Shown: positions 22,490 through 28,986 of the stretch, in pieces
Numbering within the stretch: the first letter of the stretch is position 1
Layout of the letters: the number at the start of each line of letters is the position of its first letter
Notes under the pieces: generated by a model
Database searches by the model: none
What the model was told of the DNA's origin: nothing
Seen by the model: only the letters and a program-made list of their open reading frames with translations
Source of the DNA: Lysobacteraceae bacterium
GTDB taxonomy: Bacteria > Bdellovibrionota > UBA1018 > JAGTJX01
Reading direction: 5' to 3'
Length of the DNA: 64,000 nt
Assembly (NCBI GenBank): GCA_023657465.1
Contig: JAGTJX010000002.1
Span: 62,001-126,000 of the forward strand
Made by a program: the position numbers and the translations under genes

Positions 22490-25400
22490 TCATGTCCCTG
22501 TAAGTTTTTCTGAACAAATGGTTTTCTTCAATGCTTCCCATTTTGTTGCTAAGTGATTGATCAGTTTTTGACCATAAAATGTTCCCGCATAAAGAGCTGT
22601 AGATAGAATCGAAACTCTTGTGATTTTCTCACCCCAAGATGAACTTTCGTCAAACGAGTCCACCATGAGAAATGTTGCAAAATAGGTAGTAGTGAGTGCT
22701 CCGATGAGGGTGCTTGTCCATGTGACAGATTTGTTTTCGGTTGTGAACACCGGAGGGTTTTTCAAAGCATAAGTCATCAGTGCATGTGCATTGAGCTTCT
22801 CTAGTTCTTCTGTCGAGACTCCACCATTCTTATAAGTCGCGATCAAATCATTATAGGCGTTGGTGATTTCAGAAGAGTCGTTCTTTTCCATAGCCAGTTT
22901 GAGTCTTGCCAAATATCCATAATATTTTTTAACGTCATGAGTCTTCGATATTCTTTCTGACTGAGGCAGGTTCAAATGATCCTCTATTTCACGAAGTGCT
23001 TCTCTCAGTTCCTTTGGAGCTTTTGAGATGGATAGATCGAAGAGTGATTGTAGTTCTTTGTAGCCTTCCTTCCATCTGTCTTCTTCATTGAGTCTTCCCC
23101 CTTGGCTGATGAGAGTAGTGGCTCTTTGCAATTTCTGAGTGAGCTCTGAGATATCATCCATGTCCATTTGGATTCCTCGATTCACAGGTTCCCAAATCCA
23201 GGCGTAACTCCAATTTGACCAAATAAAATAATAAATAAATCCATAGAATGCTTGATCAATATCTTGACCAGCAATGAGCACTCTGCCGACAAATAAAGTC
23301 ATGATGAGTTTCGCTTGAATTGTTTTAGTTTTTTTGATGATGCTTCTTAAATACAGTGAACCGTAATCTGCTTTTGGAATATTTAGAGAGTTACTGATCC
23401 AAGATTTAATTCCGCTGATATACGAGCGTGCGATAGGTTTTGGGGTTTGAGTGATGTATTCTCTAGGATTGTATTTTGGATCGGTCAGTTTCTGGTTGAT
23501 TTCGTGAAGTTGCGCTGCAGTTTTGATATCAGAAACGTCAGGTTGTTTCTGATAAACCATGGCAAGCATCGCTGGCACAGTCATATTGTAAGCTACTACT
23601 TGGTCGATGGTGTCTACCAAGTGTCCAGGATTCGTACTGAAAGCTGAGCCTTCTCGTGCAGCGAGTGCATCGGGCTTTGTGAGGTCAGCTCGATCACCGA
23701 ATAATGCCATTTGATCTACAGTGAGTAAGTAATCTACTAAGAATTGTTGCCAGAATATTTCTGTAACGAAGTGATTGGGCTCAATCGTTTTTAAGTATGT
23801 ATATTCGCTGACACCGAAATTAGAAATATTTTGAATTGATTTTGAAATAGTCGCATCCCATTTGTGTTTGAAATGTTTCTTCGCTTGCTCGGAGCTTGAT
23901 CTACTATTGATTTTTTCAGCAGTAGATTGAGCCACTTTATAGAACTCAACAATATCTTTTTTAGAAAGTGATTTTAGATCAGCGTTGAGAGATCCCGTAT
24001 CCATGAGTTGTTGATAGACAGCCATGAGTTCTGCAGAAGTATCTTCCCATCGCCGATTGAACTCCTCTTTGTTCTTAAGAGATTCAGGGTGAGTTTCAGC
24101 CACAGATAGCGTGACAGGATCTATTCCCGTTTTACTAGAGACCACAGTATGAGCCATGAGCCAAGCAATGGAGGTGAGGCGCTTCTTCTGATCAAGTCTC
24201 GCTGCTATCTCAGCTGCTTTCTGATCTTTTTCTTTTTTATGATCTTGCTTACTCAAGAGTGGATTAATGAATCCTACAGAGTTTTTAAAAGGAGATACCC
24301 CCAACTGCAATGTTTTCAGAAACAGTGGCTGCCTGGTGAGATCGGCAATGTGGTGAAAGAAGGGGCGGCTGAGCTCTGCATAGGCCTTGATCCCATAGGT
24401 GGCCAGTGTTTTTTTGAATGACCACCCTTTGGTTTTCCCAATCAATGTTCCTGCGGCATAGAGAATGGGGACGAAGGACGATAGCCAGAGTGTACTCTTG
24501 AGAAGTGTGATCCTGTAAACTTGATCCTTTAAAACATCAGGCCAATAATTATTATAAACTTCATTAATGATGTGATTTGCCCAAGCGTGGTCATGCCCAG
24601 TGTAGACCACAGCTCCCAGACCGAATACTCCTCCTACGGCTAGAGCGAGTTTCTTCATGCGGTCAGCTTTGAATGTTTTCTTCCAAGGGCTTACTTTTTT
24701 GACTTCAGGAACAAGATTCTTCTGTGTCTTAAATTCATTCATCCACTCATCAAATGTGAACTGATCTCGAAGCTTCTCATTGGGTGAGCTGTTACGGAAG
24801 GCAAGTGATTGCAGGATTTTGAGTTGCTGACTACCGATAGCTTGTAGTGCTTGATCGGTGAGGGAGTCCTGTTCTTGAACGGGGACATCACCAGCATTCA
24901 AAATAGCCTGACTTTCTGCAGGTAAGTAAGGAGCTAGTAAGACTGAGAGAGTGGCTTGCGCAGTACCGATTTGCATTTTAATAGTTTCACGGTCTAGAAC
25001 TTGAAAGAGTTTCCTCTGCGGAAATTCTGTTTCTATCGCTACGTCACCTGCATTCCATATTTTGTTTTCTGGGACTATAGCATCGGAGGCAATTTCTTCT
25101 GAAGTGAAGGGTTTCAAGTCTTTCGAAATAAACTGAATGTTTAAATTCTTCGAAAGATATCGCGCAGGTACTCGACCCATATCGAAAAACGGAATTGGGC
25201 TATTGAAGAGCGCTTCTCGAGCATAGACCATATCAGCTGCGAGAATTCGTTCATCGTTTTTGATAATAATCATGAGCTCTTTGTCGAAGCTCACAGAGAG
25301 TGCATCGATTCCTTTGATTTCATGAGTCGCAATCGTTTCTCCTTTTCGGATGAGATTGAGTCTCAGTTCACCTTTGGGACCAATCGTAGGTTGGAATTCT

Positions 25401-25714
25401 TTTTCAAATTCCGAGAATGCATACGTAGGGAGTGCTGCCTGAAGTTCTGAAAGAGAGTAAGTTCTGTTGTGCTTTCCATCGATGAGAAATTGATTCGTAA
25501 TGTTCCAAGCGTCTGTGCTTCTTGGGGGGAGAGCCGTTTCACTCGCGTTTTCTAATCTTGTAACGAGTGAAGCAAGCTTCGGATCTTTGAGGATTACATT
25601 TTCTATCCGAGAGAGATCATCGGTAGATTCAGTGTCTTGTGCCCATGCTAAACTTGAGGTGAGTGGATTCAACCACAGAGCAGAGATGAGTGTCCAAACG
25701 AGTAGATTCTTCAC
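22490..25714 (-). CDS. Large exported or membrane protein of unknown function (1074 residues)
   Basis: N-terminus MKNLLVWTLISALWLNP, then a likely signal cleavage near AWA-QD. Residues ~30-345 look like an exported soluble domain. From ~355 come hydrophobic stretches (LALAVGGVFGLGAVVYTG; LWLSSFVPILYAAGTLIG), a long helical part, then further segments (LIMTLFVGRVLIAG; FYGFIYYFIWSNWSYAWIW; LIGALTTTYFATFLMV). This suggests a membrane-anchored protein with a periplasmic domain. I recognise no family. It has no internal stop and a GC content like its neighbours, so it is an intact native gene. Expression is probably from its own promoter. Confidence 0.78.
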   Translation of the reverse strand: MKNLLVWTLISALWLNPLTSSLAWAQDTESTDDLSRIENVILKDPKLASLVTRLENASETALPPRSTDAWNITNQFLIDGKHNRTYSLSELQAALPTYAFSEFEKEFQPTIGPKGELRLNLIRKGETIATHEIKGIDALSVSFDKELMIIIKNDERILAADMVYAREALFNSPIPFFDMGRVPARYLSKNLNIQFISKDLKPFTSEEIASDAIVPENKIWNAGDVAIETEFPQRKLFQVLDRETIKMQIGTAQATLSVLLAPYLPAESQAILNAGDVPVQEQDSLTDQALQAIGSQQLKILQSLAFRNSSPNEKLRDQFTFDEWMNEFKTQKNLVPEVKKVSPWKKTFKADRMKKLALAVGGVFGLGAVVYTGHDHAWANHIINEVYNNYWPDVLKDQVYRITLLKSTLWLSSFVPILYAAGTLIGKTKGWSFKKTLATYGIKAYAELSRPFFHHIADLTRQPLFLKTLQLGVSPFKNSVGFINPLLSKQDHKKEKDQKAAEIAARLDQKKRLTSIAWLMAHTVVSSKTGIDPVTLSVAETHPESLKNKEEFNRRWEDTSAELMAVYQQLMDTGSLNADLKSLSKKDIVEFYKVAQSTAEKINSRSSSEQAKKHFKHKWDATISKSIQNISNFGVSEYTYLKTIEPNHFVTEIFWQQFLVDYLLTVDQMALFGDRADLTKPDALAAREGSAFSTNPGHLVDTIDQVVAYNMTVPAMLAMVYQKQPDVSDIKTAAQLHEINQKLTDPKYNPREYITQTPKPIARSYISGIKSWISNSLNIPKADYGSLYLRSIIKKTKTIQAKLIMTLFVGRVLIAGQDIDQAFYGFIYYFIWSNWSYAWIWEPVNRGIQMDMDDISELTQKLQRATTLISQGGRLNEEDRWKEGYKELQSLFDLSISKAPKELREALREIEDHLNLPQSERISKTHDVKKYYGYLARLKLAMEKNDSSEITNAYNDLIATYKNGGVSTEELEKLNAHALMTYALKNPPVFTTENKSVTWTSTLIGALTTTYFATFLMVDSFDESSSWGEKITRVSILSTALYAGTFYGQKLINHLATKWEALKKTICSEKLTGT

Positions 25715-25795: not shown

Positions 25796-26188
25796 CTATT
25801 TCCCAAAGGTTATTTTAAACTCTTGGCAGCGCTTGATCTGGTGAAGCTCTTTAGTTTCGATGGCGGTTAAGGTGCCAACTTTTGATTTGGACTCTAACTT
25901 TTTACGATGCTCAAGATACTCTTGCTCCTGTAAAGACCCAGTGAGGTTTCTGATTTTGTCCAGACCCTTACCATCATTAAAGGTGAGAGCGAGTTCTGCA
26001 TCTGCTGCAATTATCTTTTTACGAACTACAGTAAGCTCGGTTTTCTTAGTCTGGTAATGAGCATATTCCTTAGCGGTTTTTTTTAGAATGTCTTCGATGA
26101 GAAAAGTAAAGTTTTCTTTTAGATTTTCAATTTGAACTAAAGTGAGAGTTTTTTTCATATTATTAAAAAGATAATAATCATCCATCAT
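25796..26188 (-). CDS. Small helical protein, last gene of the protease operon
   Basis: 130 residues, highly charged and predicted helical (LVQIENLKENFTFLIEDILKK; EQEYLEHRKKLESKSK), without a signal peptide or membrane segment, so probably cytoplasmic. The ATG at 26188 overlaps the TGA of the decayed caspase-like gene (ATGA), so it was part of the same operon. The short A/T-rich start MMDDYYLFNNMKK could instead begin at the internal Met 11. No known domain. Confidence 0.55.
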   Translation of the reverse strand: MMDDYYLFNNMKKTLTLVQIENLKENFTFLIEDILKKTAKEYAHYQTKKTELTVVRKKIIAADAELALTFNDGKGLDKIRNLTGSLQEQEYLEHRKKLESKSKVGTLTAIETKELHQIKRCQEFKITFGK

Positions 26189-27511
26189 TTCCGAGCAGTA
26201 TTAAACTTGTAAAAATCTCTGCTGAGTTTTGCTGTAAAAAAAATTCGATATGGCTTTTTATTTAAAAATGCGCGCTCCTTTGGCTTAAAGTTTTTGCAAG
26301 GAGTTGAATAATCATATTTTCCACTAGGAGTTTCGATTTTCAAGCAAGGGGATTTTTGGTTTGCTACAGGAGGTTTGAACTTATCAAAGAGTAAATAATG
26401 AAGCAATAAACTTGCCAATGGATAGAATGCTAAAGAAGAGGTATAACCATCACCAAATTCAAAAAAGTTTGCATCATATTCTTGATCAAATTCAATGACA
26501 GGTTGGTTTTCGAGAATACGCGTTAGTTACAAAACTAATTTTTTTTCTAGTTGAATGAGAGAATCATGTTTTTTTACTTGATTATTTATTTTTTCAAGTT
26601 CGTTTTTAATTTCGGTTTTTTTTGTCTCCAACGGAGAGATGACTTGATTGAGTGAATCTAGCCAATGGTCCATTTTTTTAATTTCATTTTCTGATGAATA
26701 AGTGCTGTCAAAGTAATCAGCATCAAGCGAGTGGTAGTGTGGGATTGTTTTTTCAATAATAGATGTTTTCCATGGAATCCATGATGAAGTTGGTTTTTTA
26801 TATCCAGAGATGCTTGGATTTCCAACGCATGCTTGGCTGCCAGTAAAAGTTTGTCTTGTCATGGATAAATATAAATCTTCCATGGATAAAACTTGTTTTG
26901 CTCCATTAGATAACGCACTTAGGTTTGCAGCAAATTCATTGGAACAAGAGGTGGCTTCACTAGGACTTGAGCTCACTACACAGGCAAACTCAGAGAAAAG
27001 ATCAATAGAGAGTCCGCCGTAGCAACTGTCATCAAAAATGCTTAATTTTATTTTTTATCTGCTATTTTTTTGAGTAAAGGTTTGAACTCCTCAGCATTAA
27101 TATACTGCCCATCAATCGCCCAGGTATGCGGAGCTTGACTGCCGTGGGTTTGAATGTGAATGAGCGCTTGATCCCCCTTTTTTGCGTTTTCATATATGTA
27201 TTGAAGTTGTGCTTTGATGTTTGCCACAGTTGAACGTTTGATTGAACCGCTTTTCAATTCCGTTGCTTGCTCAATCATTTTTTTACTCCAAGAATTGGTA
27301 ATCTAGACAGTTTCTGATTTTTCTCCATCAAATAAAACAATTCTTTCTGAGTTTTTGTAAGCATTGAGAGAGTAAATGAAGTTATGTTGAAATTGATTGT
27401 ATGCATCTGTGCCATCGTCTTCACCATAATTAAAACCCATGTTTTTGGTTGTGATTTCTGTGCGTAACTTACCGAGCACTGAAGAGTTATCGCTAAGAGT
27501 AGAAGAATCAT
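26185..27511 (-). pseudogene. Caspase-fold (clan CD) cysteine protease gene, broken by four lesions
   Basis: Pieces joined in order: a signal peptide (MILLLLAITLQCSVSYAQKS, start 27511); a frameshift at about 27422-27450; YGEDDGTDAYNQFQHNF; an in-frame TAG (27303-27305); LIHIQTHGSQAPHTW with the His of the dyad (27144-27146); a frameshift at the A run 27048-27056; SIFDDSCYGG with the Cys (codon 27022-27024); then SSSPSEATSC; an in-frame TAA (26527-26529) and a C-terminal part to 26185. His and Cys strands in this order are typical of caspase/C13/C14-type proteases. Two stops and two indels suggest real decay rather than one read error. It is the third of four coupled genes. Confidence 0.75.
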
Positions 27512-27900
27512 GGCGACTCCTTCTTCTTGCAGTCTTTTTCTTGCATGAGTTGAACTTGATTCTCAAATCGTTCGCTAAATGTGAGGCCTTCGATGGAATG
27601 CTCATCCGGAAAAAACTGGAGAATCTGGTCGCCACTGACCTCTGTGATTTCGAGTTTTACTTGAACCCATCTGCCTGAGTAATTCTCCCAATCATAAGGT
27701 ATGGGTTTAATCTCAAGAGCTCGACGCGATTTTGTTCCGGGTAAAAGAATAAGTGTGCAGCCTGATTTTGTAGATTCGCATTTGAGTTTTCCTCGGATGA
27801 CATAATGGCCACATTTTTGAAAAACAAAGGGACTCCCTGCTTCTGAAAGCGTTGTTGAAAAGAAAATTGCAAGAATGAGGAACGAAGATCTAAGACCCAT
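27508..27900 (-). CDS. Small secreted protein in the protease operon
   Basis: 130 residues. Signal peptide MGLRSSFLILAIFFSTTLSEA, then a mature part with paired cysteines (KCGHYVIRGKLKCE, SGCTLILLPG) and a strand-rich pattern (RWVQVKLEITEVSGDQI) that may be a small barrel or OB-like fold. Export to the periplasm or beyond is likely. It overlaps the papain-like gene upstream by 11 bases and the caspase-like gene downstream by 4 (ATGA). No family recognised. Confidence 0.65.
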   Translation of the reverse strand: MGLRSSFLILAIFFSTTLSEAGSPFVFQKCGHYVIRGKLKCESTKSGCTLILLPGTKSRRALEIKPIPYDWENYSGRWVQVKLEITEVSGDQILQFFPDEHSIEGLTFSERFENQVQLMQEKDCKKKESP

Positions 27901-28468
27901 CAGATTTATACCCCGCTTCTTTCAAAACTTTTTTTGCGTGATCGATGAGTTTTTGTGCAGATTTAAGAGGGACATCAACGCGGGTATTGAATCCGCGGCC
28001 TACTCCCTTTTCGTAAGGAGGTTCTTTTCCAAGTTCGGTGTACTGATCCCAAGTAGGATCAATGATATTTCCATCGGCATCTTTTAACCACCAGTGAGAA
28101 GCGTTTCCTTTGATTCTAGGATCTTTGTAAGTGGCTTGCATCGGAGTAAGTCCGACCGATTTACCACCTAGTAAATGATAAACAGCATTCGATGCCAGTG
28201 TACAAAAGCCCGTACTCGGAATGTCTGGGTGTTTTTGATTCAGCTCACGCCAAATTGGATCAAGAATTTCTGGATCATTAGCGAGAGCTTTGAATGAGCT
28301 TCTAGCAGCAGAAACCACGCGAAGAATTTGGTCACGTGAGAGTGTGCTTTGGTGTGTTTCTTTGTTTTTTTCTATTAATGCATTTTTACAATTACGGATT
28401 GAAATAGGACCTGCCGCATTTGCATTTAAAGCCAAAACTATAACTAAACAGACCAAACCGCAGTTCAT
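27890..28468 (-). CDS. Putative exported papain-like/transglutaminase-like cysteine hydrolase
   Basis: 192 residues. MNCGLVCLVIVLALNANAAG is a signal peptide. The rest holds a probable Cys-His-Asp triad in the order used by papain/transglutaminase folds: GFCTLASNAVYHLLGG (Cys89), ASHWWLKDADG (His125) and NIIDPTWDQY (Asp137). The G-H-W-W ... D-P-T-W-D-Q-Y pattern is common in small uncharacterised phage and bacterial cysteine hydrolases. It is the first gene of the four-gene unit. The start is the ATG at 28468; the ribosome site is weak. Activity is inferred only. Confidence 0.65.
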   Translation of the reverse strand: MNCGLVCLVIVLALNANAAGPISIRNCKNALIEKNKETHQSTLSRDQILRVVSAARSSFKALANDPEILDPIWRELNQKHPDIPSTGFCTLASNAVYHLLGGKSVGLTPMQATYKDPRIKGNASHWWLKDADGNIIDPTWDQYTELGKEPPYEKGVGRGFNTRVDVPLKSAQKLIDHAKKVLKEAGYKSDGS

Positions 28469-28500: not shown

Positions 28501-28543
28501 TAAAAACAAAAAACCCAGATCTCATTTAAGAGACCTGGGTTTT
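28501..28543 (-). terminator. Rho-independent terminator after the RRM gene
   Basis: A 13-base stem pairs AAACCCAGATCTC (28511-28523) with GAGACCTGGGTTT (28530-28542), with one mismatch and a short loop. Read on the minus strand it is followed by a T-rich run (TTTTTTGTTTTT), as expected for termination of the RRM transcript. It could also act on plus-strand transcripts, though none is obvious. Confidence 0.8.
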
Positions 28544-28548
28544 CATTT

Positions 28549-28629: not shown

Positions 28630-28986
28630 CTACCAACGATTGCCGCCGCCTCCGCCGCCGCGTGAACCACGATCTCCACCGCGTCCGCCGCCGAAGCCGC
28701 CTGGACGTGGACCACGACCGCCGCCGCCTTCACGTGGGGTCATTGGACGAGCTTCTGAAACGTTCATATTGCGTCCTTCGAAGTCTGTTCCGTTGAGTTT
28801 GTTGATAGCATTTGTTGCTTCTTCATCAGTTGTCATTTCAACGAAACCGAAGCCTTTGCTTCGACCGCTGTCACGATCAGTGATGATTTTCGCAGATGCT
28901 ACGTTTCCGATTTGCGAAAAGATCTGTGCAAGAGAGTCATCCGTTGCAGAGAATGGAAGGTTACCGACGTATAGTTTTTTACCCAT
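28630..28986 (-). CDS. RRM RNA-binding protein with Gly/Arg-rich tail
   Basis: 118 residues. A single RNA-recognition motif (residues 3-80) has RNP2 LYVGNLPF and RNP1 KGFGFVEM. The tail from about 85 is Gly/Arg-rich (GGFGGGRGGDRGSRGGGGGG). This build is shared by cold-inducible bacterial RNA-binding proteins such as cyanobacterial Rbp and Bdellovibrio relatives. It probably chaperones or stabilises mRNA. AAGGAGGAATC precedes the ATG. A terminator follows, so the transcript is monocistronic. Confidence 0.93.
   Translation of the reverse strand: MGKKLYVGNLPFSATDDSLAQIFSQIGNVASAKIITDRDSGRSKGFGFVEMTTDEEATNAINKLNGTDFEGRNMNVSEARPMTPREGGGGRGPRPGGFGGGRGGDRGSRGGGGGGNRW

What the first reader, a model, noticed from the sequence alone, without database searches (positions are those of the whole stretch)
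25796..28468. Translationally coupled exported cysteine-hydrolase operon
Four minus-strand genes overlap end to end: 11 bases, then ATGA, then ATGA. Products: an exported Cys-His-Asp hydrolase candidate, a small Cys-rich secreted protein, an exported caspase-fold protease (now broken) and a small helical protein. A papain-like and a caspase-like enzyme in one exported, coupled unit is unusual and matches no system I know. A proteolytic cascade or an anti-competitor/predation role is inference.
Basis: partly seen in the sequence, partly recalled or inferred. Interest (0 to 1): 0.65.

Follow-up and report, generated by a model that had tools for sequence, protein, structure and literature searches.

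The report
Exported caspase-like protease with paired partner
The window holds a decayed copy of a two-gene unit found widely in predatory bacteria and their relatives, an exported caspase-like protein-cutting enzyme next to a small exported companion that probably keeps it from harming its maker; a third, phage-type gene sits beside it only here.

Summary
The overlaps are real (11, 4 and 4 bases), but there are three genes, not four. The 'small helical protein' (25796-26188) is the C-terminal end of the broken caspase-like gene: it matches the C-terminus of an intact 574-aa paralogue in the same genome (50% over 54 aa, E 2e-11). The caspase-like gene (27511-25796) has at least three frame changes and two in-frame stops.

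The 192-aa product belongs to a large, uncharacterised phage family (PHROG 12251, E 8e-18; related to YunG) with invariant Cys-His-Asp. Its place in the unit is peculiar to this genome.

The real system is the pair of the 130-aa exported protein and the exported caspase-like peptidase. In 340 genomes of the phylum (Bdellovibrionota), all 61 strong matches to the small family lie beside a caspase-like gene; all 20 named loci fetched by the caspase alone carry the small gene; 35 of 46 pairs overlap; both orders occur. The small family is unknown to Pfam, PHROGs and PADLOC and models as a small OB-like barrel.

Best explanation: an exported clan-CD peptidase with a co-translated exported inhibitor that protects the producer, as with Bacteroides C10 proteases and Bdellovibrio Bd3460. 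Inhibition is inferred. The four-gene papain-caspase cascade is not supported.

The parts
27890..28468 (-). Gene 1: 192-aa exported member of phage family PHROG 12251 / YunG-like; candidate Cys-His-Asp hydrolase (C89, H125, D137; also invariant W126 and Q142)
   Evidence: PHROG 12251 E 8.1e-18; YunG 17.5 bits, below the 27-bit cut-off; a relative in G138 is over the YunG cut-off; invariants in 38 sequences; AF2 mean pLDDT 83.7; Cys at the start of a helix, His on a strand.
27508..27900 (-). Gene 2: 130-aa exported protein of an uncharacterised family that pairs with caspase-like peptidases; the intact half of the conserved module
   Evidence: family and adjacency; AF2 mean pLDDT 77.3, OB-like strand order; no Pfam, PHROG or PADLOC family.
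25796..27511 (-). Gene 3: broken gene of an exported caspase-like (clan CD) cysteine peptidase; frame changes near 27430, 27055 and 26195, in-frame stops at 27303-27305 and 26527-26529
   Evidence: collinear with the intact 574-aa paralogue in the same genome; family; PDB 3bij E 1.2e-5; Pfam C13/C14 hits of some members.
25796..26188 (-).
   Evidence: 50% identity over 54 aa, E 2e-11, to the paralogue's C-terminus; invariant Cys and near-invariant Phe at the C-terminus of the intact members.
28509..28544 (-). Intrinsic terminator (15-bp stem) between the RRM gene and the unit; no sigma-70-type promoter match in the short gap before gene 1

Best explanation
The window carries a degenerate copy of a conserved two-gene module of Bdellovibrionota: an exported clan-CD (caspase-like) cysteine peptidase of about 440-575 residues with a helical C-terminal part, and a translationally coupled exported protein of about 100 residues (mature) with two conserved cysteines and an OB-like barrel. 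The small protein most likely folds in the periplasm and binds the peptidase there, blocking it until it reaches its target, so that the producer is not digested: a protease with its own inhibitor, i.e. a self-protection pair. In this genome the peptidase next to it is dead, and the small protein may now serve the intact paralogue elsewhere on the chromosome, which has no small gene beside it. The 192-aa phage-type Cys-His-Asp protein is a separate, local addition. Shown: the gene anatomy, the pseudogene, the families, the linkage, conservation of the catalytic dyad, and signal-peptide-like N-termini. Inferred: export itself, peptidase activity, binding, inhibition, and service to the paralogue.
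For: Linkage: 61/61 small-family matches at E<=1e-9 and 82/97 overall lie within 1 kb, same strand, of a caspase match; 81/118 caspase places have a small neighbour. Of 12 of the 15 unlinked small matches examined, 9 sit next to a more divergent caspase-like protein (HG...C[YF][SG]G-type motifs) that the profile missed, one has a remnant and two have none. All 20 loci of Bdellovibrio, Bacteriovorax and relatives fetched with the caspase alone carry the small gene. 46 distinct pairs: 35 overlap, usually by 4 or 22 bases; order caspase first 33, small first 13; signal-peptide-like N-termini by a simple rule in 44/46 small and 39/46 caspases against 91/226 control ORFs. Catalytic His and Cys invariant in 18/18. 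The caspase profile matches PDB 3bij at 1.2e-5. Precedents: Bacteroides C10 proteases coupled to exported staphostatin-like inhibitors encoded upstream or downstream (PMC3462683); Bd3460, an exported self-protection protein in an operon with endopeptidase Bd3459 that also covers Bd0816 at another locus (PMC4686830).
Against: No experiment and no complex model shows binding or inhibition. The small protein has no significant structural match, so no inhibitor fold is recognised. 37 of 118 caspase places, including the intact paralogue, lack a detected partner, so the partner is not strictly required. An intact small gene beside a dead peptidase may simply not have decayed yet. Limits of the genome search's first look and contig ends affect the counts.
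Confidence: 0.5

Rival explanations
1. The small protein is a dedicated folding or secretion chaperone (like lipase foldases) or a stable subunit needed for peptidase activity, not an inhibitor.
For: Strict linkage, translational coupling and shared export signals fit a foldase or subunit equally well.
Against: 37 of 118 caspase-like genes have no detected partner beside them, including an intact paralogue here. Both gene orders occur. The closest precedents with this gene layout are inhibitors.
Confidence: 0.3
2. The pair is chiefly a weapon: the peptidase is delivered into prey or competitors and the small protein is its immunity protein. This is a narrower form of the best explanation and could hold together with it.
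For: Found in predatory groups (Bdellovibrio, Bacteriovorax), several copies per genome in some (up to five match places), fast divergence of both proteins.
Against: No delivery signal beyond an ordinary signal peptide was seen. The module is also in MAGs of unknown lifestyle. Delivery to prey was not tested.
Confidence: 0.3
3. One reading: a four-gene exported system in which a papain-like and a caspase-like enzyme work together.
For: The overlaps in this genome are real, and gene 1 has a conserved Cys-His-Asp set and a papain-compatible topology.
Against: Gene 4 is part of gene 3. Gene 1 is rare in relatives and stands alone in G051 and G138. The YunG profile search found no match at a caspase place.
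Confidence: 0.03
4. The broken caspase gene is an assembly or sequencing artefact and the gene is intact.
For: Frame changes can come from read errors in an assembly; the reads could not be examined.
Against: Two in-frame stops as well as at least three frame changes in 1.7 kb, while the neighbouring genes are open.
Confidence: 0.08

Closest known systems
Bacteroides C10 proteases (Bfp/Btp) with staphostatin-like inhibitors (Bfi/Bti), and staphopain-staphostatin, SpeB-Spi (PMC3462683)
   Same: Exported cysteine protease gene coupled to a small protein; inhibitor gene upstream or downstream; gaps of a few bases; exported inhibitor in Bacteroides; low identity among inhibitors.
   Different: Those proteases are papain-like (C10/C47); here the peptidase is clan CD. 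The small protein matches no known family and its predicted strand order looks OB-like. Inhibition is not shown.
Bd3460 with Bd3459/Bd0816, Bdellovibrio bacteriovorus self-protection (PMC4686830)
   Same: Exported small protector in an operon with an exported hydrolase in the same phylum; also covers a second enzyme encoded elsewhere.
   Different: Ankyrin repeats and peptidoglycan endopeptidases there; a small beta barrel and a caspase-like peptidase here.
Prokaryotic metacaspases/orthocaspases (PMC3501461); PDB 3bij GSU0716; Pfam Peptidase C13/C14
   Same: His-Gly and Cys dyad in the same context; profile match to 3bij; some members hit C13 or C14.
   Different: Most members hit no Pfam family; long helical C-terminal part with a conserved terminal C..F motif; the paper's main text does not name Bdellovibrio; paired with an unknown exported protein.
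PHROG 12251 / YunG (PF24585), for gene 1
   Same: Sequence match, with invariant Cys, His, Trp, Asp and Gln.
   Different: Phage members start without an obvious signal peptide; gene 1 and its G051 relative have a hydrophobic signal-like N-terminus.

Membership tests
Clan CD (caspase-like) cysteine peptidases | His-Gly and Cys catalytic dyad in strand-end motifs | tested here: met
   H119 and C165 invariant in 18/18; both motifs present in the broken window copy.
Clan CD (caspase-like) cysteine peptidases | Homology to a solved caspase-like structure | tested here: met
   Family profile against PDB 3bij, E 1.2e-5, over the dyad region; Pfam C13 best E 1.1e-7 and C14 best E 0.006 for a few members.
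Clan CD (caspase-like) cysteine peptidases | Predicted caspase fold and peptidase activity | not tested
Staphostatin-type protease inhibitors | Small protein gene coupled to an exported cysteine protease gene | tested here: met
Staphostatin-type protease inhibitors | Cognate protease of family C10 or C47 (papain-like) | tested here: not met
   The partner is clan CD.
Staphostatin-type protease inhibitors | Lipocalin-like barrel | tested here: inconclusive
   AF2 mean pLDDT 77 with an OB-like strand order; no significant Foldseek match.
Staphostatin-type protease inhibitors | Inhibits its protease | not testable with these tools
   Needs a biochemical assay.
OB-fold proteins (gene 2) | Five-stranded barrel with a helix between strands 3 and 4 | tested here: inconclusive
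   Strand order fits; the weak Foldseek hits include many OB domains, but none has E<=0.001.
PHROG 12251 (gene 1) | Profile match and conserved residues | tested here: met
   E 8.1e-18; C89, H125, W126, D137, Q142 invariant in 38 sequences.
YunG, PF24585 (gene 1) | Score over the curated cut-off | tested here: not met
   17.5 against 27 bits; only its relative in G138 is over the cut-off. So gene 1 is called YunG-related, not a member.
Papain-like fold (gene 1) | Cys at the start of a helix, His and Asp on following strands; significant match to a papain-like structure | tested here: inconclusive
   The topology fits; Foldseek hits include several papain-like proteases but none is significant.

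The most novel reading that the evidence does not exclude
The small exported family is a new class of protease inhibitor for clan-CD (caspase-like) peptidases, and the pair is a widespread, undescribed protease and self-protection system of predatory bacteria, in the sense in which Bd3460 protects against its own endopeptidases.
Probability: 0.4. Interest if true: 0.8.

Novelty: new variant of a known kind. Interest (0 to 1): 0.55.

Why it matters
An exported caspase-like peptidase with a dedicated partner, conserved across a phylum of predators, offers a concrete testable case of how predatory bacteria avoid digesting themselves. It may also supply a small-protein inhibitor co-encoded with a bacterial caspase-like enzyme, for which I found no earlier report in the open-access library searched. 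The small family had no Pfam, PHROG or PADLOC name, so the linkage gives it its first functional context. The window copy itself is a decayed example.

Tried and rejected
Four-gene system: rejected, since gene 4 is the C-terminus of gene 3 and gene 1 is not with the pair in relatives. Gene 1 as the core enzyme: rejected; it is a phage-type family. Phage defence: no PADLOC match. Presence of the caspase on plasmids or in IMG/VR viral contigs: none found. Pfam/NCBIfam naming of caspase and partner: none for most members. Link to the downstream 1074-aa gene: matches in only 4 of 57 other related genomes; proximity to the module was not examined. The first genome-collection scan with gene 1 gave nothing; the caspase alignment A5 was too diverse for pattern search.

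Full report
What is there. The minus-strand ORFs and overlaps are as described: gene 1 28468-27890, gene 2 27900-27508 (11-base overlap), and an ATGA overlap into the next ORF. A terminator at 28544-28509 closes the RRM gene upstream.

The broken gene. A search with pieces of the broken gene found an intact 574-aa paralogue in the same genome (G000 contig C4; L025:4975-6699). tblastn of that paralogue against the window gives three collinear blocks in three frames, 27428-27138, 27087-26437 and 25960-25799, with stops inside the first two. The intact family members end in the same C-terminal motif (invariant Cys, near-invariant Phe). So genes 3 and 4 are one decayed gene, 27511-25796. At least three frame changes and two in-frame stops argue against a programmed frameshift; sequencing error cannot be fully excluded without the reads.

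The conserved pair. Neighbours of caspase-like genes in relatives showed a small exported protein resembling gene 2, usually overlapping the caspase gene. A scan of 340 genomes of the phylum with both profiles gave 118 caspase places (after merging split matches by hand) in 78 genomes and 97 small-protein places in 64 genomes. All 61 small matches at E<=1e-9, and 82 of 97 in all, lie within 1 kb and on the same strand as a caspase match; 81 caspase places have such a neighbour. Of the 15 remaining small matches I examined 12: nine have a divergent caspase-like neighbour with His-Gly and Cys motifs, one has a remnant, two have none. A scan of named genomes by caspase patterns gave 20 loci (Bdellovibrio, including B. 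bacteriovorus strain kdesi, Bacteriovorax, Bacteriovoracaceae and Bdellovibrionales MAGs), all with the small gene; two of these MAG contigs are the same as genomes in the first scan. In 46 distinct pairs 35 overlap, most often by 4 or 22 bases; the caspase is first in 33, the small gene in 13. The window has the rarer order of that set (small gene first).

The proteins. The caspase family keeps His-Gly and Cys in all 18 aligned members. Its profile matches PDB 3bij at 1.2e-5, and some members hit Pfam C13 or C14. The small family has no Pfam, PHROG or PADLOC match for the members tested. Its two cysteines (C30 and C124 of gene 2) are invariant in the 21-row alignment. The AF2 model of gene 2 (21 sequences, mean pLDDT 77) shows six strands with a short helix between strands 3 and 4; no structure matches significantly, though many weak hits are OB domains.

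Gene 1. It matches PHROG 12251 (E 8e-18) and relatives in Caulobacter and Synechococcus phages and over a hundred viral contigs. C89, H125, W126, D137 and Q142 are invariant in 38 sequences. The AF2 model (mean pLDDT 84) puts the Cys at the start of a helix and the His on a strand, compatible with a papain-like enzyme, but no PDB match is significant. Among 143 genomes it is found in four, its own included and one a weak match; where its surroundings could be judged (G051, on a short contig, and G138) it is not with the pair. It falls short of the YunG cut-off itself.

Mechanism. The strictest reading of the data is a peptidase with a dedicated exported partner. Inhibition for self-protection is the most likely role, because the closest arrangements on record are inhibitor or protector pairs: Bacteroides C10 proteases with exported staphostatin-like inhibitors placed on either side (PMC3462683), and Bd3460 protecting Bdellovibrio from its own endopeptidases, one of them encoded elsewhere (PMC4686830). 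That last point makes it plausible, not shown, that gene 2 now serves the intact paralogue. A foldase or subunit role remains open.

Novelty. No paper on this pair was found in the open-access library searched; subscription papers are not covered. The kind of system (protease plus coupled small partner) is known; the combination of a clan-CD peptidase and this uncharacterised exported family appears new.

Noticed in passing
L119:673-4584: Two modules side by side in one Bacteriovorax MAG: caspase, small, small, caspase on one strand, showing both gene orders in a single locus.
   Followed up: partly
L296-L304 (e.g. L299:3184-4977, L302:3181-4722): A divergent caspase-like group with motifs such as TDHG and HDHCFGG is paired with the same small family although the caspase profile barely detects it; the linkage reaches further than either profile shows.
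   Followed up: partly
L027:2826-5247: In genome G016 (family f5) the caspase-like gene is overlapped instead by an exported 251-aa protein that the small-family profile does not match; possibly an alternative partner.
   Followed up: no
22490-25714 (-): 1074-aa exported, apparently multi-pass protein downstream of the unit, found in only 4 of 57 other related genomes; in G051, which also has a gene 1 relative, it is split into pieces.
   Followed up: partly
28630-28986 (-): RRM RNA-binding protein with a glycine-rich tail, followed by a strong terminator.
   Followed up: no
L124 (G118:C1:1329620-1329787): A weak YunG-like match with two stops inside in a genome of the genus labelled g73, perhaps a second decayed member of the gene 1 family.
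   Followed up: no
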